Part shown: positions 494 through 39,627 of the stretch, piece after piece
Layout of the letters: each line of letters starts with the position of its first letter
How positions within the stretch are numbered: position 1 is the stretch's first letter
Virus record (IMG/VR): IMGVR_UViG_3300007640_000012
Coordinates: 1-41,883 of that record
Source of the DNA: a virus
Reading direction: 5' to 3' (one strand)
Length of the DNA stretch: 41,883 nucleotides
The notes under the pieces: model-generated
What the model was told of the DNA's origin: nothing
Databases searched by the model: none
What the model saw: the letters and a program-made list of their open reading frames with translations, nothing else
Translations under genes and position numbers: made by a program

Positions 494-1340
494 GCCATTC
501 AACGGGAGACGGGAGGACCTAAGTGACCTCCATGCGTGGAAGATGGTCCCGCTGTCGGTCATCAACGACACCAACCTCAGCCCCATCGCGCTCGCCCTGT
601 TCGTGTGGCTCTTCACAAGACCGGAGGGGTGGGACTACAGCATCAGCGGCACATCAGAGGCGCGTGGATGGTCAAGAAATACCGTACAAAAATATTTGTC
701 AGAGCTTTCTGAGGCAGGATATCTGAACATCCGAAAAGACGAAAAATCCAGTAAATTTGCCTACGTTTGGTCGTTTAACCCCTACCCAAATGGGGTGACA
801 AGATCCACCGACACCCAGATTTTGGGTAGCGATAACGTGAGCACCCCAGGCGACTTCGACACCGATCCTGACACCGAAGCCGACACCGACGCCAAGGATC
901 TTGACGTTTTAGCTGCTCAAGATTTGAGCACAAATATAGAAGAGAATACTCTAGCTAGTTTTACTACCTCTCTAGCTACAACGAAAACCCCTAGTACCCC
1001 TACGCCGCAGCCAGCAACGTCACAGCGCGAGGTGCCGGTTCCGCCACCCTACCGGCGGAAGCCATCCACCACGATCCCGGCTGACTGGGAGCCGGACGAA
1101 CGCCACACCTACCGGGCAGCGGAGTTCGGACTGAACCTGCGGCTAGAAGCGGAGAAGTTCGTGAACTACTTCGAATCCACCGGGAAGCGGAAACGGGACT
1201 GGCCGCGAACGTTTCACAACTGGCTCATCAGGGCGCATGAGTACAAGCACCCCCTCCCCAGTCGCGTAATACCCCAAAAATTGGGCGGCGGAGGTGGTGG
1301 GGCAGGAAATGGGTATCGAGCATTCACCCACGATGACTGA
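486..1340 (+). CDS. Phage replication initiator / helicase-loader-like protein
   Basis: A 284-residue protein in three parts. Residues about 30-95 form a helix-turn-helix (LSPIALALFVWLF, GTSEARGWSRNTVQKYLSEL, AGYLNIRK), as in HTH_36-type replication proteins. Residues about 100-190 are a low-complexity Asp/Thr/Ser/Pro linker. Residues about 195-255 (IPADWEPDERH ... FVNYFESTGKRKRDWPRTFHNWLIRA) resemble the C-terminal DnaT-like domain that often ends phage initiators and helicase loaders. A glycine-rich tail follows. The DnaB-like helicase two genes downstream is its likely partner. The product resembles initiators of phages that use the host polymerase, which fits the absence of a phage DNA polymerase here. 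Confidence 0.7.
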   Translation: MPKPFNGRREDLSDLHAWKMVPLSVINDTNLSPIALALFVWLFTRPEGWDYSISGTSEARGWSRNTVQKYLSELSEAGYLNIRKDEKSSKFAYVWSFNPYPNGVTRSTDTQILGSDNVSTPGDFDTDPDTEADTDAKDLDVLAAQDLSTNIEENTLASFTTSLATTKTPSTPTPQPATSQREVPVPPPYRRKPSTTIPADWEPDERHTYRAAEFGLNLRLEAEKFVNYFESTGKRKRDWPRTFHNWLIRAHEYKHPLPSRVIPQKLGGGGGGAGNGYRAFTHDD

Positions 1341-4921: not shown

Positions 4922-5229
4922 TGCCGACGATAACCAAGGCGTGGATTGTATTTTCCGCAGCCGTGCTGGTAAATGCATTTCTTGCCAGCCATATCCTGAC
5001 GTTCCTACTTGTGTCCGCCTTCGTGGTACTTGAGGGTAGTGCGGTAATGTCAAAAAAGTGGGGCAACACTTACAGCGAACACGTTTGGATGATCCCAGCC
5101 ACGGCAATTAGATGGACCGTTGGCGTGTGGCTGGCGCTACAGGTAATGCTACAGATCAACTGGGTTGTCGGGCTGCTGGTGATGGCGTGGCTTCCAGTAC
5201 ACTTTGTTTCAAAAAAATCCTGGCATTAA
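4921..5229 (+). CDS. Small integral membrane protein
   Basis: A 102-residue protein whose ATG overlaps the previous stop by one base. Hydrophobic segments at about residues 8-26, 27-42 and 72-94 (VGVWLALQVMLQINWVVGLL) predict two to four membrane helices, separated by a polar loop (MSKKWGNTYSEHVW). It has no recognisable family. Its place between a zinc ribbon and a glycosyltransferase does not settle its role. A holin is possible, but three segments with a polar loop are not diagnostic. Confidence 0.6.
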   Translation: MPTITKAWIVFSAAVLVNAFLASHILTFLLVSAFVVLEGSAVMSKKWGNTYSEHVWMIPATAIRWTVGVWLALQVMLQINWVVGLLVMAWLPVHFVSKKSWH

Positions 5230-5232
5230 AAC

Positions 5233-5943
5233 ATGAGTATTCTGGTTTGTACCCTCTGTCGAAACGAAATGGGCAGATACCTGCAACAAGTCGTTCCAAT
5301 TTGGCAAGAATTTGCGGACGATATTCTTGTTGTGGATGACCGTTCGACGGACGGCTCACGGGAATACATGATTGAGGAAAAGTGTCGGGTGTACGACAAC
5401 CTCTCAGAGCCGATGATGGGCGCGGAACACGACATTCGCCAGTATCTCTGGGACATCGCAACGCAATCCAAGCACGATATTTTGCTATGGCTAGATGCCG
5501 ATATGTACCCAGCCTGTAACCCCAAGGATGCGTTTAGGGAAGACGCAAATTCTTTCGCATTTAAGTACTACGATCTCTGGGGCGAGTGGGAGTACCGGGA
5601 CGATGTATGGTGGGACGCACACACAAGGCCCCGTGTATGGGCTATACGCAACCCAGGCCCCAACAGCCACAAGCTTCCAAGGGCAGCATGGCACTCAGGG
5701 CACATCCCCGACAGCGCAAAGATCCAGCCGCTTCAGGTGATGGATGACCGCTATTCTCTGTTGCATCTAGCTTACGCCACTCCAGAAGGGCGCAAGCGGC
5801 AGTTTGCAAAGTACGCCCTGCTGTATCAAGATAGTGCGTTGTCGCCAGCAGCCTGGGGTCACGCTTTAACGATCATGGACAAAGCAGCAAACACAGCGAT
5901 GCTGCCATTTGCCCCGGAGTACCATGTCGATCCTAATTCGTAA
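5233..5943 (+). CDS. GT2-type glycosyltransferase
   Basis: A 236-residue GT-A fold glycosyltransferase. The nucleotide-binding VVDDRSTDGS lies at residues 33-42 and the metal-binding DxD (WLDADMYP, Asp88 and Asp90) follows about 50 residues later. The C-terminal half carries HLAYATPEGRKRQFAKYA, common in this group. It should transfer a sugar from a nucleotide donor to an unknown acceptor, either modified phage DNA, a virion protein or the host surface. It is one of three glycosyltransferase-like genes in this genome. It overlaps the next gene by 20 bases. Confidence 0.85.
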   Translation: MSILVCTLCRNEMGRYLQQVVPIWQEFADDILVVDDRSTDGSREYMIEEKCRVYDNLSEPMMGAEHDIRQYLWDIATQSKHDILLWLDADMYPACNPKDAFREDANSFAFKYYDLWGEWEYRDDVWWDAHTRPRVWAIRNPGPNSHKLPRAAWHSGHIPDSAKIQPLQVMDDRYSLLHLAYATPEGRKRQFAKYALLYQDSALSPAAWGHALTIMDKAANTAMLPFAPEYHVDPNS

Positions 5944-31739: not shown

Positions 31740-31985
31740 TTAACCTCTCCTGTTTAGTTTATCCATGGCTCTTTGCCGAACAGCATCGCTATTAGCAGCA
31801 GAAGTTAGCCGGGATTTTAGGCGGCGAATCAACCGTTGTTCGCACCATAGATCGTCTCTTTCCGCCGACGACGTAGCGGTACTCCATTCCATAGAAATTT
31901 CTTTAAATACTTCTTCACAAATGTGTTCAAAAAATTCGTTGTCTAATAGCTCTCTTGCGCGTTCACAATGTTCGTTACTAAGCAC
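31740..31985 (-). CDS. Small helical protein between portal and scaffold
   Basis: An 81-residue helical protein (CERARELLDNEFFEHICEEVFKEISMEW ... AERDDLWCEQRLIRRLKSRL). Proteins of this size and pattern often lie between portal and scaffold in short-tailed phages, with no assigned role. It overlaps the portal gene end by eight bases. Confidence 0.6.
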   Translation of the reverse strand: MLSNEHCERARELLDNEFFEHICEEVFKEISMEWSTATSSAERDDLWCEQRLIRRLKSRLTSAANSDAVRQRAMDKLNRRG

Positions 31986-33975
31986 TAGTAGCCTTTCTTG
32001 CCTTGTCGATTTCTAGCTTTTCCCAATCAACATTGAGTTCAGCGGCCCTCAGAGCAAACTCAAGGGCGGTCCTGTCTCGCTCACGGTCATCCTTGAGCGC
32101 CTCAATCTGAGCCTTTAGGGCGAGATCCTCGCGCTTCATCTGGATCTCAGCCATAATCATCTCTCGCTGCGCCTGTGCCAGCAACTCTTCCGCAGACGGC
32201 TCGTCGTTGGGCGGCAATTGGAAGTCCGGCGGGATCGGGTTCCAGAAGCTGGACACATCCTTGAAGCCACTAAGCTCCATAATCTTTGCTTGCGTGTGCC
32301 GGATCTGCCCAAGCGTAACTAGCGGGTTGCTGGGTCCAAGCATCTGCATTGCCGCAACCTGTGCCTGTAGCGTCTCGCGCAGAACCATAAGCTTCTGGTC
32401 CTCCAGGCCGCTGCCCAGCGCCACATTGACACTAGCGTCCATCTGGGCGTCCCACAGGCGAGGATCAATTGGCACCCACGTTCCGCGCAGCCGGACCATG
32501 CGCTCTGCGTCTTGATGCTGGATGACAAGGTGCAGCAGGACGCGCATAAGCCGCTTCATGCCAGTTTCGGCAAGATTACGGGCCATGACCTCAAGCGTCA
32601 GCTTGGAGCCACGCTCAATTGCGGCCACGGCGGATGCGGTCATGCTCTGAAGCGCACCAGCGTCAAGGCCAGACGACTGGGCAGAGATCCCGGTGCGCTG
32701 CTCCTTGATGCGGTCAAACATATCCAGCACCGGCATCGCCTCACGCCCCACAAACGGCTGGGTGTACGGCATCACCATTCCAGGGGCATCCATGCGGATA
32801 ATCCCGCCGGTTTCGTTGTTTAGCGCATCCTCAAGGTTCACATGGCCGTCTACAACACCCATGCGGGGGTTAACAGACTGCGCCAGCGAGTCCAGCATAC
32901 TCCGCATGATCTCAGAATTGATGCGCTGGAGGTCCTTGGTGCGATCCGCCAGATCGTGTCCAACGAAGGTGTGCGGCTCCGGGTCAATGTGAAAGTCCGC
33001 AAACGGACGGATGTCCCACGGATCATTTGCCACCACTTCGTGGGCATCGCCAATGCAGCAGACGCGACGAAGCTCGTCAATGCCATCACCGTCGTAGTCG
33101 GCGTAAACATACGATTCGATGTAGAGGACACGCTCCCTATCACGCGATCCGCCCGAATCTCTGATCTCAAAACGGTTGCGCTCATGGCGCTCATTGTTCC
33201 ATGTAAGATCGTCGGCTTTCGTGATGTGGGAGCGTACCAATTCCGGATCGTACCCCATCGCAATCAACTGAGATGGCGTTTTCATGCAACGATGCGCCAC
33301 AAACTGGGCATCATCCAGCCCTCTTGCGTCCCTAGAGATCAAAAACTCCTCTGGAGGCAGCACTTCAACACAGATCCTGTCGCCAGAAGTGCGTCTACGC
33401 ACCTCAACGTCGAATTCCATGCCAATTTCGTCGCCTTCCAGCGCAATAATCTCTACATTCGGGTCTTGCTGTAGCGTCTGGACGGCCAAAAGGTTCAGTT
33501 TCGTGAACTGATGGGTGGTCACGGACGTAGAATCGTCAAAAAACGCCTTGACAATGCCAACTTTCTTTGTCAAAGCGTCCTTGAAGGCACCCCAAAGGAT
33601 GCGATAGCCCGGATTATCCTGCATCAGGACGTAATTGGCGTAATCCGTGGCCTGTTCCGCCATCTGGACATCTTCCTCAGTCCTTGGCACAAACTCTACA
33701 ACCCGCTCAGAGCCCGCAAACACGCGCATCAGCGAGGGCATCGCCTGTTGCACCGTGTCGCGCAGCGTAGTCATAACTACCTGAGAGCGACCTTCTTCTT
33801 CATTGCCAAATTTGTCGCCACGATAGTAGCGGGTGGCCTCCCTACGGTGACTCGCTAACTGCGAATCAGCGTAGTTGACCGCATCGTCAATGTAGGACTC
33901 AACCAGCTTACTGAGTTCCGCTGGTTCCATTCCTACGCCAGACGCATCCTCAACCTCATCAATGATAGAAGCCAT
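31978..33975 (-). CDS. Portal protein (P22-like)
   Basis: A 665-residue protein. Features are REATRYYRGDKFGNEEEGRS, VVMTTLRDTVQQAMPSLMRV, FKDALTKKVGIVKAFFDDS, YADYDGDGIDELRRVCCIGD, RTKDLQRINSEIMRSMLDSL, and a C-terminal coiled coil (AEIQMKREDLALKAQIEAL). These match the portal of P22-like and SU10-like phages, which forms the dodecameric DNA gate. Its transcription probably starts at the promoter 34009-34037, giving a short leader. Confidence 0.85.
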   Translation of the reverse strand: MASIIDEVEDASGVGMEPAELSKLVESYIDDAVNYADSQLASHRREATRYYRGDKFGNEEEGRSQVVMTTLRDTVQQAMPSLMRVFAGSERVVEFVPRTEEDVQMAEQATDYANYVLMQDNPGYRILWGAFKDALTKKVGIVKAFFDDSTSVTTHQFTKLNLLAVQTLQQDPNVEIIALEGDEIGMEFDVEVRRRTSGDRICVEVLPPEEFLISRDARGLDDAQFVAHRCMKTPSQLIAMGYDPELVRSHITKADDLTWNNERHERNRFEIRDSGGSRDRERVLYIESYVYADYDGDGIDELRRVCCIGDAHEVVANDPWDIRPFADFHIDPEPHTFVGHDLADRTKDLQRINSEIMRSMLDSLAQSVNPRMGVVDGHVNLEDALNNETGGIIRMDAPGMVMPYTQPFVGREAMPVLDMFDRIKEQRTGISAQSSGLDAGALQSMTASAVAAIERGSKLTLEVMARNLAETGMKRLMRVLLHLVIQHQDAERMVRLRGTWVPIDPRLWDAQMDASVNVALGSGLEDQKLMVLRETLQAQVAAMQMLGPSNPLVTLGQIRHTQAKIMELSGFKDVSSFWNPIPPDFQLPPNDEPSAEELLAQAQREMIMAEIQMKREDLALKAQIEALKDDRERDRTALEFALRAAELNVDWEKLEIDKARKATSA

Positions 33976-34161: not shown

Positions 34162-35568
34162 CTAAACCAATCTTGGGATCAAGCGCCTTACGGGCTTGCG
34201 CCAATCAAACTTTTCGCTACCACTCAGGCGAGCAGCCGTTGAAGCAAACGTAAGCGCCAACGCATCTGCGCGATCCGGGGAGTCGGCACCCCTCTTTTTC
34301 ATGCCCTGCTTGCTTTCAAGCCTAATCTTGCCGCGATCCGTGTACTCAAAACGCACCGAAACCAACTCCTCCATCAATTCCTTGTCGTTTGGTAGCCGCA
34401 CATCGCGCTGTTCAAGCCACGCCTTCATGTTGTACCACAACTCAGACCGCAGATTCAAATGCTGTCCTTTGAGTGAAGGCGATTCAGATACATTGATGCC
34501 ACGCACAGGTAGACCAAGACTACGAAGACGATCCACAACACCAGCGCCAACACCGATAACATCGACCAAAATCTCACTAGGGCGGTACGGACCCAGCGCA
34601 GCCTCATATTCCGCCTCCACCAGACCCGCAAGCTGCATCGTGTCCAAAGAACGCCACGTTTGAATGTTGCCCAGCAAGACATTTCCTTTCCTTTTCGCCA
34701 GCGCAGACGAGTCAGAACCAAACCGCGCAACATCCAACCCCCACACAACCGGCGCATCCGCAATTTCGTCCACATCACGCCCAATTGCGGCCTCAACCAA
34801 CGACACCGGAATCACCGTGTTCGACTCGCCCCTGGGAAACTCGCCCAAAACGTGGATGCGGTACGGGTCCGAATCATCCCCATACTTGCGCTTCATGCGC
34901 CCAATCCATGATTCGCTCACCCGCGAGCATTGTTCACTGCTCACATGGAACGTCTTCCACGAATCCGCCTCCACCGTGTGCGACTCGTAAAAGAAACCAC
35001 TTGTGCGGTTTGGGTTACCCGTCAAAAACAAGCACGTTTTACCACGATTGCCGGCTAGTGAACCACTCAACGACTCAAACAACGCATCATCTACCGCCGC
35101 AGCCTCGTCCACCAACACCAATACGTTTGGAGCATTCATCCCCTGCATTGACTCAGGACTGTCCTTACGCGCCGTCTTGATCGTAATAAAGTTCTCAAAC
35201 GGCTGGCGAGGATCAAACTTAAACTCAAAACGCTCCGCCTTGATCGTCCAACAATCACGCAACTCCTGCGGCAACGTGTTTACCCACTTCTTGAACTCAG
35301 GGATGTACGCATCCTCCAACTGCCCACTACTAGGCGCAGTCACCAACACCCTGGCATCACGATGCACCATCAAAAACCACATCGACAACCACGCCAGCAC
35401 CGTCGTCTTCCCCACCTGACGCCCAGACCTAATCGTGATCTGCGTCTCACCGTCCGCCACCGCTTGCATTACCTCAGACTGCCAGCTATCAGGGTCTTCC
35501 TCCAACAACGCCCTTACAAACAACACCGGCTCGCGCCTTAGACGCCCCACCATTTCCTCTAGCTGCAT
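34162..35568 (-). CDS. terL: Terminase large subunit
   Basis: A 468-residue packaging ATPase-nuclease. The ATPase has Walker A SGRQVGKT (residues 48-55), Walker B VLVLVDEA (149-156) and LFLTGNPNR as coupling motif. The RNase H-like nuclease shows WGLDVARFGSDSSA, EILVDVIGVGAGVVDRL and SPDRADALALTFA with its acidic residues. It pumps DNA through the portal and cuts the concatemer. It differs in type from the GpA remnant at 4263. It is followed by its own terminator. A promoter candidate lies at 35703-35730. Confidence 0.9.
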   Translation of the reverse strand: MQLEEMVGRLRREPVLFVRALLEEDPDSWQSEVMQAVADGETQITIRSGRQVGKTTVLAWLSMWFLMVHRDARVLVTAPSSGQLEDAYIPEFKKWVNTLPQELRDCWTIKAERFEFKFDPRQPFENFITIKTARKDSPESMQGMNAPNVLVLVDEAAAVDDALFESLSGSLAGNRGKTCLFLTGNPNRTSGFFYESHTVEADSWKTFHVSSEQCSRVSESWIGRMKRKYGDDSDPYRIHVLGEFPRGESNTVIPVSLVEAAIGRDVDEIADAPVVWGLDVARFGSDSSALAKRKGNVLLGNIQTWRSLDTMQLAGLVEAEYEAALGPYRPSEILVDVIGVGAGVVDRLRSLGLPVRGINVSESPSLKGQHLNLRSELWYNMKAWLEQRDVRLPNDKELMEELVSVRFEYTDRGKIRLESKQGMKKRGADSPDRADALALTFASTAARLSGSEKFDWRKPVRRLIPRLV

Positions 35569-35702
35569 CGTTCTAATTTCTCCCGTCTAAAAAACACCGC
35601 GCAAATACTTACCAAAATGACATCCGCCCACCGGTGAAATACCAAGCCAACTTTTAAACCGTTCTAATTTTTAAAAATTGGGGCGCACATTCATTACAGT
35701 AA

Positions 35703-35730
35703 ATGATGGGGGGGGTACCAGTATAGTCAA
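35703..35730 (-). promoter_or_regulatory. Candidate promoter for terL
   Basis: On the leftward strand TTGACT (35730-35725) is followed after 16 bases by CATCAT (35708-35703), a weak -10 box. The spacer contains eight consecutive C. An alternative -10, TATACT, overlaps the TTGACT. Transcription would start near 35696 and give a leader of about 130 bases containing a 14-bp AT-rich palindrome. Confidence 0.35.
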
Positions 35731-35831
35731 ACTATGGCCTAATTGCTAGGCTTTTGCGCGCACCGTCTTTCTGTGTGTGGACTAGCCCGGCAAAGCGCAC
35801 CCCCTGTTATTTAAGGGGGGGCTCCCGGCAT

Positions 35832-35890
35832 CTTCGGCTTTTCTTCGGCTTTTCTCTGGTTTTTCTTCGGGCCTTCGGGTTTTGTTCGGG
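35832..35890. repeat. CTTCGG tandem repeat tract
   Basis: Imperfect 11-bp units stand in tandem: CTTCGGCTTTT (35832-35842), CTTCGGCTTTT (35843-35853), CTCTGGTTTTT (35854-35864), CTTCGGGC, CTTCGGGTTTTG and TTCGGG. The first two are identical. The repeated pyrimidine run could be a binding site or a set of weak termination or pause sites for rightward transcription. Confidence 0.7.
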
Positions 35891-36267
35891 TGTCTGGCGA
35901 ACCGCCCAGGAGGCGCGCAAACGGCCCCAGGAGCCCCAAGGACGCCGAACCCCTATATATATGGCCCCGCGCCGTCCGTGAGGCTTTGATGGGCGTTTCC
36001 GTGCGTGTAGAGGGCGTTCTGGGCGGTCGGTGGGGCTAGCTATGCAACCAAGCGGCTAGGCAGCAAGACTCCGCACCCCCTATCTGTCTTTCTAATATCT
36101 ATCCCTGCTCTCTCCCCCCTTGGGTGTATCGTGGCCCCCCGTTGAGGCGTGGGCGCAGCTAGCTGGCGTGCCTGTTCCCCCGTGCGCGGAGCGTGGTCAG
36201 CTTGTGGGCAAGCGAGGGGGGCGAGCCCGTAGGACCCGCCCCCGTTCCGCGTTTTGTGGCGGTCCCC

Positions 36268-36477
36268 CTATTCCCAAGAATAGAAAACTTTGCCCACGTC
36301 CCTTTCCCCGGCCCCGTTGACCACGGCGAAAACGTAGGATGGGCCGGAATACGCCCCCACCACAATCTCGATGGTCCACGGGCCAGCAATCCACCCCCTC
36401 CCCTCAGTCCAGATTTCCGGGACCGTTTCCCCCTTCCGGGGTATAAGCGGCGTTTCCGTCCCCCTGATTTTCTTCAC
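36268..36477 (-). CDS. Small protein of unknown function
   Basis: A 69-residue protein starting at GTG 36477, which overlaps the XRE stop (GTGA). It looks beta-rich (PEIWTEGRGWIAGPWTIEIV, GPSYVFAVVNGAGERDVGKV). AAGGGGGG lies four bases before the start, the G-tract ribosome site used throughout this cluster. No family is recognised. Confidence 0.5.
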   Translation of the reverse strand: MKKIRGTETPLIPRKGETVPEIWTEGRGWIAGPWTIEIVVGAYSGPSYVFAVVNGAGERDVGKVFYSWE

Positions 36478-36674
36478 GGATCCCCCCTTAGTTTCTTTCC
36501 GAGCGTTTCTAGCGCTAGCCCCAACATATCCGGGGGTGGGTGATTCCCCGTTTCCCACAAAGAGACCGTTTTCCGGGTCACCCCTAGATGTTCTGCGAGT
36601 TCTTCCTGGGTGACGCAATGATATCTGCGCCATCCCCGGATAAAGCGGGCCATCCCTTCTTCAAATGAAAGCAT
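36474..36674 (-). CDS. XRE-family transcriptional regulator
   Basis: A 66-residue protein. Residues 21-43 (VTQEELAEHLGVTRKTVSLW plus ETG) form a Cro/CI-type helix-turn-helix, with a helical start (FEEGMARFIRGWRRYH). Such small proteins bind palindromic operators as dimers. The paired operators at 38070-38095 and 38864-38890 are candidate targets. GGGGG lies eight bases before the ATG. Confidence 0.8.
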   Translation of the reverse strand: MLSFEEGMARFIRGWRRYHCVTQEELAEHLGVTRKTVSLWETGNHPPPDMLGLALETLGKKLRGDP

Positions 36675-36677
36675 TTT

Positions 36678-37370
36678 TCAGCCCCCGACTACGAAACCGG
36701 AAGTGTCACCCTTTGCCTCACCCTTCGCGGTCAACCCGACAATGCAACCCTTAGGGTCCAGGAACCTGAGGTCCGTATCGTCCCCGGACACTACGGGTAG
36801 CCCACGGTATGTCTCGGGAAGGTCGCCAGCAAAAACAACCGCAACGTTCAACCCACGGCGCACCACCCCCGCAAGTCTGTTTTCGTTGGATTCACTACGG
36901 GAAAATGTAAGATGATAGTTTGCGGGTATGTTCCTGCGGTTCGGAAGCTTTGTGTAGTCGTAAAAGGTGAGGTGCGGGAAAGCTTCCATAACGTTGGGGA
37001 ACCTTTCTCCGTCCCTGGTGCAGGGGATGGTTTCCCACCTAATGTCTGAGGTTCCGTTCAAGCGGAAGACCGGAACCATACCCCCCCGGTTAGCCTTGCG
37101 CTCTGCCGACTCGATATCCCCCACAAGCTCCCCCATGAAACCGGCCCGGTCCTCAAAAAGCTTCCGAGTCTTCCGTACCCTTGCGTCCTGGACGGGATTG
37201 AACCGTCCCCGGCCAGCGGTATTCAAGCAAGCGGAGAGGCAACCCTTAGAAGCGCCGGGGCAAACCTGGAAACCTGAAAGCTTGCCAGGGGCAAGATGTA
37301 GAATAAACGTCAGATACCCTTGCGCCTCACCCTTGCGGGTTTTCGTGTTCGAAACGGATAAAAGCTTCAT
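36678..37370 (-). CDS. GP88-like phage protein
   Basis: A 230-residue protein matching the Gene product 88 family (Pfam GP88): CPGASKGCLSACLNTAGRGRF, RVRKTRKLFEDRAGFMGEL, FRLNGTSDIRWE, FYDYTKLPNRRNIPANYHLTFSRSESNE, NVAVVFAGDLP, LRFLDPKGCIVGLTAKGEAKGDTSGFVV. The cysteines in the first motif may bind a metal or Fe-S cluster. The function is not known. It starts after a seven-G tract four bases before ATG. Confidence 0.8.
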   Translation of the reverse strand: MKLLSVSNTKTRKGEAQGYLTFILHLAPGKLSGFQVCPGASKGCLSACLNTAGRGRFNPVQDARVRKTRKLFEDRAGFMGELVGDIESAERKANRGGMVPVFRLNGTSDIRWETIPCTRDGERFPNVMEAFPHLTFYDYTKLPNRRNIPANYHLTFSRSESNENRLAGVVRRGLNVAVVFAGDLPETYRGLPVVSGDDTDLRFLDPKGCIVGLTAKGEAKGDTSGFVVGG

Positions 37371-37380
37371 TGTGCCCCCC

Positions 37381-37587
37381 CTATGAAAGGATTTTTACAA
37401 CCCTACCACCTTCGACCCTCACCCTGGCGTACCAGCGGTGTGGTTCCGGATAGTGTGGACCTTCAATCGTGGTGGTGCCGGTGTCTGGCGCGGGAATCAG
37501 GCCCGGGCTGAAAACATAGACTTCCCGGCCTGATGAAACCGCTTCGCGGAAAGCTTTCTTTGTCTTGAAGTTTGGCGAAACGTACAT
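37381..37587 (-). CDS. Small protein of unknown function
   Basis: A 68-residue protein (MYVSPNFKTKKAFREAVSSG, REVYVFSPGLIPAPDTGTTT, HRWYARVRVEGGRVVKIL). It is basic and strand-rich. Eight G lie only one base before the ATG, in the arrangement TAGGGGGGGGT-ATGTAC shared with the two neighbouring small genes. No family is recognised. Confidence 0.55.
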   Translation of the reverse strand: MYVSPNFKTKKAFREAVSSGREVYVFSPGLIPAPDTGTTTIEGPHYPEPHRWYARVRVEGGRVVKILS

Positions 37588-37595
37588 ACCCCCCC

Positions 37596-37700
37596 CTACC
37601 GTTGAAGGCTAGTGAACGAAAGCGCCAGCGCCAGAAAAACCCACACCCCCACCAGCGCCCCCGCAAGAATCTCCCCGGAAAGCTCAACCCCTAGGTACAT
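37596..37700 (-). CDS. Tiny membrane protein
   Basis: A 34-residue frame with one hydrophobic helix (EILAGALVGVWVFLALALSF). ATG 37700 follows TAGGGGGGACC. The next gene starts eight bases after its stop. Its start codons ATGTAC are shared with two neighbours. The size is small, but the ribosome site and membrane helix support a real gene. Confidence 0.5.
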   Translation of the reverse strand: MYLGVELSGEILAGALVGVWVFLALALSFTSLQR

Positions 37701-37728
37701 GGTCCCCCCTACAGAATGAAGACAACAA

Positions 37729-37854
37729 CTAAAGAACGAAAAAAAACACGGCTAGAGCCCAAATCGCGAGCACCATCCCTAGGGATGCTGCCCCCATGGC
37801 TAGGATCGCACGGGCCTCGACGAGCACGTTGGCGGGAAGTGGGCGTCGTATCAT
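37729..37854 (-). CDS. Tiny membrane protein
   Basis: A 41-residue frame starting at ATG 37854, which overlaps the stop of the gene before it (TTATGA). A basic N-terminus (MIRRPLPANVLVEARAIL) leads to one membrane helix (GAASLGMVLAIWALAVFFFVL). The coupling to the previous gene is the main support. Confidence 0.5.
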   Translation of the reverse strand: MIRRPLPANVLVEARAILAMGAASLGMVLAIWALAVFFFVL

Positions 37855-37979
37855 AACTCGGCCTCCTCGGCGGTATGCGCAACCCATTCCCCCTGCACCT
37901 CTGCGGACCAGCGGCTGGCCTCACGCGCCGTCGCTGGCCTGTCGCAGGAGTGCCCCCAAATTACGGTCCAAACGTACAT
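37851..37979 (-). CDS. Very small protein of unknown function
   Basis: A 42-residue frame starting at ATG 37979 after GAGGAGGGGGGATT, the strongest ribosome site in the cluster. The sequence (MYVWTVIWGHSCDRPATARE, EVQGEWVAHTAEEAEL) is soluble and tryptophan-rich. It is the first gene of the leftward small-gene cluster downstream of the operator at 38070-38095. Confidence 0.5.
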   Translation of the reverse strand: MYVWTVIWGHSCDRPATAREASRWSAEVQGEWVAHTAEEAEL

Positions 37980-38069
37980 AATCCCCCCTCCTCTAAAGGT
38001 GGTGATGAACTTGCTCCAAGGTACGGTAAAAAATTGGGCACGCAACCCCTTTGGCGGGGGCCGGGGAAT

Positions 38070-38094
38070 ATCGTTACAATTTAGGCCAGCCTAA
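38070..38094 (-). promoter_or_regulatory. Operator-promoter element, left copy
   Basis: On the leftward strand TTAGGctggCCTAAATTGTAACGAT. The inverted repeat TTAGG...CCTAA is followed by TGTAACGAT. The same arrangement occurs rightward at 38866-38890 (20 of 25 bases agree). TGT-AACGAT could be an extended -10 with the inverted repeat over the spacer. It would drive the small-gene cluster from 37979 leftward. Confidence 0.55.
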
Positions 38095-38209
38095 GGGAAG
38101 TTTTTGGGCAGACAAGCGGTAGGCGGCGGGCGATCTTTGCCCCATGTTTAGAGACCCCCGACACCAAATACGCCAGGGCCGGCGCGGTGCGTCCGGCAAG
38201 GTGTCTCGA

Positions 38210-38236
38210 CGTTTAAACGAAACTAGAATCCTAGTT
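38210..38236. repeat. Two palindromes beyond terS
   Basis: CGTTTAAACG (38210-38219) is a perfect 10-bp palindrome, followed by AACTAG-AATC-CTAGTT (38221-38236), an inverted repeat with six-base arms. Together with the iterons at 38303-38359 they mark a structured non-coding stretch of about 280 bp (38095-38371) between the left operator and the terS stop. Confidence 0.55.
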
Positions 38237-38302
38237 CTATGGACTGGCGAACCCAGAGCATGGCCGATCCGCATGGAATGGATCGAACCGACACGAAGAG
38301 GG

Positions 38303-38359
38303 GATTCTCTGGCGTAACCGGGACCGATTCTCTGGTGTAACCCGATTCTCTGGTGTAAC
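38303..38359 (+). repeat. Three 16-bp iterons next to terS
   Basis: GATTCTCTGGCGTAAC (38303-38318), GATTCTCTGGTGTAAC (38326-38341) and GATTCTCTGGTGTAAC (38344-38359) stand in the same direction, 23 and 18 bases apart. They end 12 bases beyond the terS stop. Clustered direct repeats beside terS resemble the sites bound by small terminase subunits (cosB/pac) or by replication initiators. The identity of the ligand is inference. Confidence 0.75.
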
Positions 38360-38371
38360 GGACCCCAATCC

Positions 38372-38851
38372 CTAGTCTTCGATCTCGTACTCCGCGTCTT
38401 CTGCCGGTGCGGGCAACCGCTCCTGATGCTCCGCTGCGGTGATCGCGCGCAGAATCGCCTGACCCAGCGTTGACACCACCGCATCCACGCCGCCACCGTA
38501 CTCCTCACGGTTGTTGACACCAGCCCGCCATTTGAGCGTCTCCACCTGTAGTTTTTTCGCTTGCCAGTCCTCCTGCGTGGCGTGCATCGCGATGTGTACA
38601 GCCTCATCGGCGTCCATATCCCCGCGCAGCTTGCGTAGCCTACGCCACGCCTGTTTGGCGTCTGGGTCGCGGTCCAGCCACCCGTAGAGGGCAGACACGC
38701 CGACAGTCTGATTTTCCTGGGCCGGCTCCCAGAGCGAGGAGACCAAGGCCCGCACGGTGCCATGCTCAAGGTACAAGCGAAAAACCTCCTCCACGCCCAT
38801 GTCCTCTAGCTGTGCAATCCGCGCCTCGTAGATTCTTCTGCCCCCAGCCAT
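38372..38851 (-). CDS. terS: Terminase small subunit
   Basis: A 159-residue protein. The N-terminal helix-turn-helix (IAQLEDMGVEEVFRLYLEHG, VGVSALYGWLDRDPDAKQAW) and the middle MDADEAVHIAMHATQED followed by KKLQVETLKWRAGVNNREEYGGG are typical of small terminase subunits, which bind the packaging site and oligomerise. The tail is acidic. GGAGGTCGC precedes the ATG. TerL lies about 2.8 kb away, an unusual distance. Iterons lie just beyond its stop. Confidence 0.75.
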   Translation of the reverse strand: MAGGRRIYEARIAQLEDMGVEEVFRLYLEHGTVRALVSSLWEPAQENQTVGVSALYGWLDRDPDAKQAWRRLRKLRGDMDADEAVHIAMHATQEDWQAKKLQVETLKWRAGVNNREEYGGGVDAVVSTLGQAILRAITAAEHQERLPAPAEDAEYEIED

Positions 38852-38861
38852 GCGACCTCCG

Positions 38862-38890
38862 TTGTTTAGGTGTGCCTAAACTGTAACAAT
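38862..38890 (+). promoter_or_regulatory. Operator-promoter element, right copy
   Basis: GTTTAGG-TGTG-CCTAAAC (38864-38881) is an 18-base inverted repeat with seven-base arms, followed by TGTAACAAT (38882-38890). A possible promoter is TTGTTT (38862-38867), 17-base spacer, AACAAT (38885-38890) with an extended TGT. The inverted repeat then fills the spacer, the classic place for a repressor. It would fire rightward, upstream of the stronger promoter at 38925. It also lies just before terS on the other strand. Confidence 0.55.
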
Positions 38891-38924
38891 GTTCCCGCGC
38901 ATGGAAAATAGGCTGACAAGGGTG

Positions 38925-38953
38925 TTGACGGCCCATTTGCACATCGCTAGAAT
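38925..38953 (+). promoter_or_regulatory. Sigma70-like early promoter of the rightward arm
   Basis: TTGACG (38925-38930) and TAGAAT (38948-38953) are spaced by 17 bases, five of six matches to consensus in each box. Transcription should start near 38960, about 60 bases before the first gene (39020). It is the most convincing rightward promoter in the divergent region. Confidence 0.75.
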
Positions 38954-39019
38954 AAGTGTGTAACGCCGGTTGCATAGCACGGCGCTTGATTGTAAATTTT
39001 ATCACCAAGGGGAGGCCAC

Positions 39020-39235
39020 ATGAACGGACACGAAGTGCTGGACTATTTTGCCGACAAGCGGGACGAGAGCCGTGACATCGCGCTCCAGCGCCTCTGGGAC
39101 GCTCGCAAGCTCCTGTGCGAGGCGGCAGACGCTTCGCTGTGGGCTCATGTACCCGGACTCCACGGGGGCATCAACGAGGCGGTTGAGGCAATCACGCAAC
39201 TGAGGATCCTGATCCACACTAGAGAGGCGAAGTAA
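39020..39235 (+). CDS. First early gene, unknown function
   Basis: A 71-residue protein with AAGGGGAGG before the ATG. It appears helical and charged (HEVLDYFADKRDESRDIALQ, RLWDARKLLCEAADASL, INEAVEAITQLRILIHT). It is the first gene after the early promoter, a position often used for host-takeover proteins, but no motif supports a specific role. Confidence 0.6.
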   Translation: MNGHEVLDYFADKRDESRDIALQRLWDARKLLCEAADASLWAHVPGLHGGINEAVEAITQLRILIHTREAK

Positions 39236-39236
39236 G

Positions 39237-39428
39237 ATGAGACGCGACGAGGAGAGAGAGATTGCGGTTGATTGCCCTTCTTGCGAGGCACGGATCGACG
39301 TTCTGTTCTCTTGGGAGGAGGGTGTGATTGACTGGGACGGTTGTCCCTGCTCGCTCAATGGATTCATCGACGAAGAGCGGTGGGTGGAGCGGCTGGGCGA
39401 ACTGGCCGCAGAACGGTTTGACGACTAA
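39237..39428 (+). CDS. Small putative zinc-binding protein
   Basis: A 63-residue protein with Cys13, Cys16, Cys36 and Cys38 (VDCPSCEAR, GCPCSL), a possible zinc ribbon, in an acidic sequence (FSWEEGVIDWDG, ERWVERLGELAAERFDD). It starts one base after the preceding stop. It may act as a small regulator or protein-binding factor. Confidence 0.6.
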   Translation: MRRDEEREIAVDCPSCEARIDVLFSWEEGVIDWDGCPCSLNGFIDEERWVERLGELAAERFDD

Positions 39429-39441
39429 CGGAGACTTGACT

Positions 39442-39627
39442 GTGACAAAACGAGAAGCAATCGAAGCCGCCGCAGCTTGGGGGATTAGCGGCGCACAACT
39501 CGCAGCCGCATGGGGGCACACACGGCAATGGCTGTATGTAGCGAGGAAGACGCCGCTCCCCAAAGTGTACGAGCTAGCACTACCCGAAACCATCAACCAA
39601 CTCAGCAAGGGGGTAAAAACGTGGTGA
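39442..39627 (+). CDS. Small HTH DNA-binding protein (Cro-like)
   Basis: A 61-residue protein starting at GTG 39442, eight bases after GGAG. TKREAIEAAAAWGISGAQLA and AAWGHTRQWLYVARKTPLPK fit a helix-turn-helix in which AAWGHTRQWLY is the recognition helix. Upstream starts are open but lie in the previous gene. It is a second candidate, besides the XRE protein at 36474, for binding the paired operators. Confidence 0.6.
   Translation: MTKREAIEAAAAWGISGAQLAAAWGHTRQWLYVARKTPLPKVYELALPETINQLSKGVKTW

What the first reader, a model, noticed from the sequence alone, without database searches (positions are those of the whole stretch)
35569..36267. Gene-free, palindrome-rich 700 bp with a CTTCGG tandem tract
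In a genome where genes overlap by a few bases, 700 bp without a credible gene stands out. It contains at least five short palindromes, an eight-G run, a TATATATA run and five or six 11-bp CTTCGG units. It could be an origin, a packaging site or a structured RNA.
Basis: partly seen in the sequence, partly recalled or inferred. Interest (0 to 1): 0.55.

Follow-up and report, generated by a model that had tools for sequence, protein, structure and literature searches.

The report
Conserved phage DNA-packaging cut signal
The gene-free 700 bases carry a short C-run/spacer/G-run DNA signal, shared by many related and mostly uncultured phages beside their DNA-packaging genes, that most likely marks where the phage's DNA is cut when a genome is packed into the virus head.

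Summary
The gap is real: 35569-36267 (699 bp) holds no credible gene and lies directly upstream of TerL in a phage contig whose ends share 123 identical bases. Its core is not the CTTCGG tract but the element beside it: minus-strand C7-N10-G5 (35821-35800).

Among 84 loci chosen by TerL alone, 66 carry the element upstream of TerL (54 strict, 12 looser, accepted by eye). TerS was located in 59 of those 66: 47 read TerS-element-TerL, 12 element-TerS-TerL.

The one cultured clade member found with annotated ends, Sinorhizobium phage phiM5, has the element once per 357-bp direct terminal repeat, 13 bases inside its right end, and nowhere else in 44,005 bp.

Best reading: a terminal-repeat packaging cut signal. 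Origin, structured RNA and intrinsic terminator are not supported, nor a hidden gene next to TerL. The window's own DNA ends were not measured; phiM5's rest on the deposited annotation. Novelty: new variant of a known kind.

The parts
35569..36267 (.). gene-free gap upstream of TerL; probably holds much or all of the terminal repeat (extent inferred)
   Evidence: the same place is gene-free in relative L004 (734 bp)
35800..35821 (-). core element C7-N10-G5: proposed terminal-repeat/packaging cut signal
   Evidence: phiM5 equivalent ends 13 nt before the annotated repeat end
35786..35799 (-). zone of the predicted right-end cut (INFERRED: phiM5 offset of 13 nt after the G-run puts it at about 35787/35786)
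   Evidence: transfer from the phiM5 record; not measured in the window
35831..35889 (-). tandem CCGAA(GAAAA) boxes, read as CTTCGG on the + strand; possible terminase-binding iterons (inferred)
   Evidence: tandem also in L004. One or two CCGAA boxes precede the C-run in TerL-found L025, L108, L046 and L096; L113, L115, L117 have one too but were found by a pattern that includes it
35569..35693 (-). conserved non-coding leader of TerL (114 of 125 nt identical to L004), with ribosome-binding-site-like GGGAG; probable leader/promoter area
   Evidence: weak sigma70-like match nearby at 35730-35703, 1 found vs 0.5 expected
35647..35681 (.). 12-bp inverted repeat (11-nt spacer) inside that leader, identical in L004
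34162..35568 (-). terminase large subunit (TerL)
   Evidence: PHROG phrog_2 E=8.5e-46; tblastn
38372..38851 (-). terminase small subunit (TerS), 2.8 kb upstream of TerL
   Evidence: phrog_1482, E=3.6e-10 and 2e-8
36474..36674 (-). 66-aa helix-turn-helix regulator between TerS and the gap
   Evidence: PHROG transcriptional regulators, E=5.6e-8
36268..36477 (-). small ORF bordering the gap, function unknown
36678..37370 (-). Gp88-like protein, cargo gene between TerS and TerL
   Evidence: PF17338 E=2.9e-48
31978..33975 (-). portal protein, next gene after TerL
   Evidence: phrog_1216 E=2.5e-150

Best explanation
The gap is the packaging/terminal-repeat region of a podovirus-type phage whose packaging and head genes resemble those of phiM5. 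The element C7-N10-G5 marks the place on replicated, concatemeric DNA where terminase makes the right end of the direct terminal repeat. SHOWN: the element is conserved, sits at the terminase genes in one orientation across much of the TerL clade, and in phiM5 lies 13 nt inside the annotated right end of the terminal repeat. INFERRED: terminase reads the element and cuts about 10-15 nt beyond the G-run (about 35787 here); the repeat extends upstream into the gap; the tandem CCGAA boxes help dock terminase. phiM5's TerS falls in a different PHROG while the core is constant, so the core may be read by TerL rather than TerS (inferred).
For: (1) TerL-selected set: 84 loci, 669,882 bp; 58 C5+N7-20G5+ hits versus 5 for the reversed order; 54 of 84 loci have a strict one upstream of TerL and 12 more a G4 version with family flanks. 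(2) TerS located in 59 of 66: 47 TerS-element-TerL, 12 element-TerS-TerL. (3) DNA-only scans of viral contigs. First: 9 of 10 contigs carry this TerL with the element upstream; three of the nine are the contigs the pattern came from, so 6 of 7 new ones. Second: of 120 stretches, 105 have TerL downstream on the same strand, 0 opposite, 15 none; 29 of the 120 contigs recur from the TerL search, leaving 76 of 91 new ones. (4) phiM5: 357-bp repeats annotated at 1-357 and 43648-44005, identical over 357 bp, overlapping a TerS-like ORF (phrog_2538, E=2.8e-6); its only C5..G5 element and only C or G run of 7 or more end 13 nt inside the right end, once per copy. phiM5 TerL is 54.2% and 55.5% identical to those of element-bearing L065 and L027. 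(5) Conservation outside the pattern, 44 non-redundant elements: A at -1 in 39, C at +1 in 36, G at +2 in 40. (6) Closest relatives keep it: L004, L025 with TerL 63% identical. Phage C72C1 (OQ984150) has one just upstream of TerL.
Against: Physical ends were not measured in the window or any uncultured relative. phiM5's ends rest on the deposited annotation; the primary paper is not held. Eighteen of 84 TerL-selected loci show no element: 13 with at least 700 bp upstream (including GenBank MW202879, MW202711, MW202496), 5 with less. Only 2 of 9 TerL relatives in bacterial assemblies show it (L280, L281); three of the nine have under 200 bp upstream. The window's own element departs from the commonest flanks: G at -1 (4 of 44) and T at +1 (6 of 44), though G at +2 fits. 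Contig ends were not tested systematically: G006 starts about 10 nt after the G-run, but L151, L226 and L223 end 36, 41 and 60 nt after it, and L257 starts 3 nt before the C-run. Repeats just 5' of the element are only modestly enriched, 39 of 71 versus 39% expected.
Confidence: 0.75

Rival explanations
1. A regulatory site of the late operon: promoter, leader RNA or terminator upstream of TerL.
For: Same-strand gene order, a conserved TerL leader, a weak sigma70-like match. L046 and L054 have TTGACA and TATAAT hexamers just 5' of their element, though 20 nt apart, too wide for the consensus (counted by eye).
Against: 0 of 71 elements have T4 within 14 nt after the G-run and 3 of 71 have A4 before the C-run, so not an intrinsic terminator on either strand. 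No unusual fold in six elements. The element stays at the terminases while its place relative to TerS and TerL differs.
Confidence: 0.1
2. A cohesive-end (cos) site in this lineage instead of a terminal repeat: same signal class, different end product.
For: Location at the terminase genes suits cos as well; the two-fold C-run/G-run symmetry suits staggered nicks (inference).
Against: The one clade member found with annotated ends has a 357-bp terminal repeat.
Confidence: 0.08
3. Replication origin with iterons.
For: Tandem 11-bp units and an AT-rich inverted repeat.
Against: GC-skew turns at about 39 kb and 9 kb, not here; the replication-initiation-like and DnaB-like genes lie at 486-2783; the element tracks the terminase genes.
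Confidence: 0.04
4. Composition accident or assembly artefact.
For: G- and C-runs are common here: P=0.21 for a run of 8.
Against: Reversed-order control 5 versus 58; other contigs, L002 and L004, span it; DNA-only scans return TerL neighbours.
Confidence: 0.02

Closest known systems
Sinorhizobium phage phiM5 direct terminal repeat (MF074189.1)
   Same: same TerL clade and TerL-portal-scaffold-MCP order; C-run/spacer/G-run element just upstream of TerL
   Different: phiM5 repeat is annotated and overlaps a TerS of another PHROG family; no CCGAA boxes; the window has several genes between TerS and the element
T7-type direct terminal repeat/concatemer junction (recalled, not tested by a call)
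   Same: terminal repeat on concatemers and site-specific cutting near the right end (recalled)
   Different: no T7-like sequence was sought; T7's junction involves phage RNA-polymerase pausing (recalled)
Cobavirus terminal repeats (PMC6775973, passages seen)
   Same: terminal repeats of 159-173 bp, a related stretch lying in an ORF-free region of SIO1, with a conserved GC-rich part
   Different: the conserved part is described at the 5' end of the repeat; relation to this element not tested
Herpesvirus pac1 motif (PMC10763189, passages seen)
   Same: short core flanked by homopolymer-rich arms near a terminase cut (32 bp of terminal sequence lie between motif and end in the virus described)
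   Different: pac1 has C-rich arms on both sides; here one arm is C and the other G

Membership tests
phage direct-terminal-repeat packaging site (phiM5 type) | lies at the terminase genes, one orientation | tested here: met
   105 of 120 TerL same strand, 0 opposite, 15 none; TerS located in 59 of 66
phage direct-terminal-repeat packaging site (phiM5 type) | coincides with an end of the terminal repeat in a relative with annotated ends | tested here: met
   phiM5: 13 nt inside the right end, once per repeat copy, nowhere else; one relative only
phage direct-terminal-repeat packaging site (phiM5 type) | the window's own genome has terminal repeats ending there | not testable with these tools
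   no reads held; the 123-bp identity of contig ends lies elsewhere and equals an assembler word size (assembler settings recalled)
cos site | short single-stranded cohesive ends | not testable with these tools
   needs virion DNA ends
intrinsic terminator | GC-rich stem followed by a T tract | tested here: not met
   0 of 71; 0 sites in 35400-36400
structured RNA | Rfam match or unusual stability | tested here: not met
replication origin | GC-skew switch at the site | tested here: not met
herpesvirus pac1 | C-rich arms on both sides of an A/T core | tested here: not met
   arms are C on one side and G on the other

The most novel reading that the evidence does not exclude
One short C-run/spacer/G-run signal, read by the large terminase itself rather than by the fast-changing small subunit, sets a physical genome end across a whole mostly uncultured phage clade, so that those ends can be read from sequence alone. 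It would be a phage counterpart, in logic, of the herpesvirus pac1 motif.
Probability: 0.35. Interest if true: 0.72.

Novelty: new variant of a known kind. Interest (0 to 1): 0.56.

Why it matters
Physical ends of phage genomes are usually lost in metagenomes. A sequence mark that predicts the end, and so the packaging mode, in many uncultured phages can be checked at once on existing read sets. How terminases choose the terminal-repeat cut is poorly understood outside a few models (recalled); a compact signal with tens of natural variants would make it testable. For this window it turns a puzzling blank into the likely packaging region.

Tried and rejected
Rfam and tRNA/tmRNA found nothing in the window; the terminator scan found none in 35400-36400. 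The gap itself has no blastn match in the phage collection. An 18-mer from the TerL leader hit two extra contigs, L022 and L023, with no homologue of the 13 window proteins tried; dropped as chance.

Contig starts 112-135 bp upstream of the C-run (L161, L080, L188, G033) first looked like physical left ends. Some short distances were artefacts of truncated stretches (L153, L166), and G033 closes by an exact 127-bp repeat, so I treat them as assembly breaks near the C-run and give them no weight. G041 carries the element twice, but its ends overlap at 97% over 2860 columns: strain overlap, not a terminal repeat. Hidden coding: rejected for the 125 bp next to TerL; the rest of the gap was tested only for ORF length. 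Outgroups phiEf11 and phiCD27 show no element in their first 900 bp, but those records begin at TerS, so nothing upstream of it was seen. Dropped before counts: six loci duplicating window or L004 contigs. The 12 looser elements were accepted by eye from family flanks; that loose pattern gives 21 hits versus 7 reversed in those 25 loci. The 71-element set was drawn before the last 40 stretches were examined.

Full report
What the window is. The window is one 41,883-base IMG/VR virus record. Its first and last 123 bases are identical, and contig L007 runs across that junction, so it is probably a circularly closed assembly of about 41,760 bases. It encodes a phage with TerL, portal, scaffold and a probable major capsid gene in order on the minus strand, close in kind to Sinorhizobium phage phiM5.

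The observation. 35569-36267 is without a credible gene and is the largest gap in my hand gene list; my simple gene finder also left 37371-38371 empty, though short ORFs lie there. The tandem CTTCGG tract is beyond chance, but with four exact units rather than five or six. Palindromes and the G8 run are not surprising for the composition.

Anatomy, read along TerL (minus strand): TerS (38372-38851), cargo genes including a Gp88-like protein and a small HTH regulator, a small ORF, then the gap. In the gap come tandem CCGAA(GAAAA) boxes, the C7-N10-G5 element at 35821-35800, and a 125-bp leader, 114 of 125 identical to relative L004, running into TerL. L004 is 92.6% identical over TerL, portal and head genes. 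Upstream its genes differ, apart from an HTH protein (57% over 51 residues) and a short ORF of about 40 residues, yet it keeps the gap, boxes, element and leader. L025, TerL 63% identical, keeps box and element with a small HTH gene between element and TerL.

The element belongs to the TerL clade. A DNA-only scan with box and element returned ten contigs, nine with this TerL at 42-63% identity and the element upstream; three of the nine are the contigs the pattern was taken from, so 6 of 7 new ones. I then turned to contigs found by TerL only (with L004 and three GenBank records). In 84 loci a C-run/spacer/G-run occurs 58 times and the reversed order 5 times. Fifty-four loci have a strict element upstream of TerL; 12 more have a G4 version with family flanks, accepted by eye. 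Thirteen with at least 700 bases upstream and five with less show none. Flanks outside the pattern are conserved (A at -1 in 39 of 44 non-redundant elements, C at +1 in 36, G at +2 in 40); the window's element has the less common G at -1 and T at +1. Twenty-nine of the 120 contigs recur, which leaves 76 of 91 new contigs. TerS was located in 59 of 66 element loci: 47 TerS-element-TerL, 12 element-TerS-TerL. The element is in the largest or second largest called intergenic interval of its locus in 45 of 52 cases with both borders seen; three of 66 fall inside a predicted ORF.

What it marks. phiM5, TerL 54.2% and 55.5% identical to element-bearing L065 and L027, is the one cultured member found with annotated ends: direct terminal repeats at 1-357 and 43648-44005, identical over 357 bases. 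The repeat overlaps a TerS-like ORF and ends just before TerL. Its only C5..G5 element, and only C or G run of seven or more in 44,005 bases, ends 13 bases before the right end of each copy. I therefore read the element as the right-end signal of the terminal repeat. One uncultured full-length contig (G006) starts about there; others break near the element but not at that point (L151, L226, L223, L257), so contig ends decide nothing. The original phiM5 paper is not held, so how its ends were found is unknown to me.

What it is not. No T-tract follows it (0 of 71), six folds are ordinary, GC skew turns elsewhere, Rfam is silent, and the conserved leader encodes no shared peptide on the TerL strand.

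Mechanism, as inferred. Terminase meets the concatemer at this region, perhaps first through the tandem boxes, engages the C-run/G-run, and cuts some 13 bases beyond the G-run, near 35787; the repeat extends upstream. The tandem boxes are lineage-specific, and repeats 5' of the element are only modestly enriched clade-wide (39 of 71 versus 39% expected), so their role is weakly supported. phiM5 TerS matches phrog_2538 while window, L065 and L027 TerS match phrog_1482 best, yet the core is shared; that hints that TerL reads the core.

Known or new. Terminal-repeat packaging is well known; this clade-wide signal I did not find described. Basis: listings of searches (two returned nothing) and passages of PMC6775973, PMC10763189, PMC10386132, PMC10783043, PMC13299392, PMC10580990 and PMC10127595. 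The library holds only openly licensed papers, so this is weak evidence of novelty.

Noticed in passing
window 38300-38359: Just after the TerS stop codon there are two exact 18-bp direct repeats (TRF) and a third imperfect copy by eye; possibly a second binding site tied to TerS.
   Followed up: no
window about 37730-37855 (-) and L004 about 1180-1306 (+): A short ORF of about 40 residues matches between window and L004 (tblastx) and is missing from my gene list; it looks membrane-spanning by eye.
   Followed up: no
window 36216-36243 and 29749-29776: Two reversed-order inverted repeats (G-run then C-run), one near the far end of the gap, one in the 366-bp gap after the major capsid gene.
   Followed up: no
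L108 1705-1800: Tandem array of a short GAGGGATA-like unit in the gene-free stretch upstream of the element (by eye).
   Followed up: no
L109 2716-5148: TerL reading frame is about 1 kb longer than in relatives, with an intein-like insertion start in the ATPase region (intein reading recalled, not tested).
   Followed up: no
L109, between TerL and portal (about 5150-5280): Two copies of a promoter-like sequence containing a palindrome, an operator-like arrangement (by eye).
   Followed up: no
L045, L046, L054, about 690 bases upstream of TerL: A recombinase-like gene (judged by eye; not scanned) sits between element and TerL; L046 and L054 have TTGACA and TATAAT hexamers 20 nt apart just 5' of the element.
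   Followed up: no
L280 (Paraburkholderia oxyphila contig), -1369 to -39 relative to the TerL match: A cultured bacterium's contig carries a related TerL with a 1.3-kb stretch without called genes and a clear element at -717; likely prophage and a possible laboratory system.
   Followed up: partly
window 37600-39500: Few convincing gene calls besides TerS; the gene finder and ORF list disagree here.
   Followed up: no
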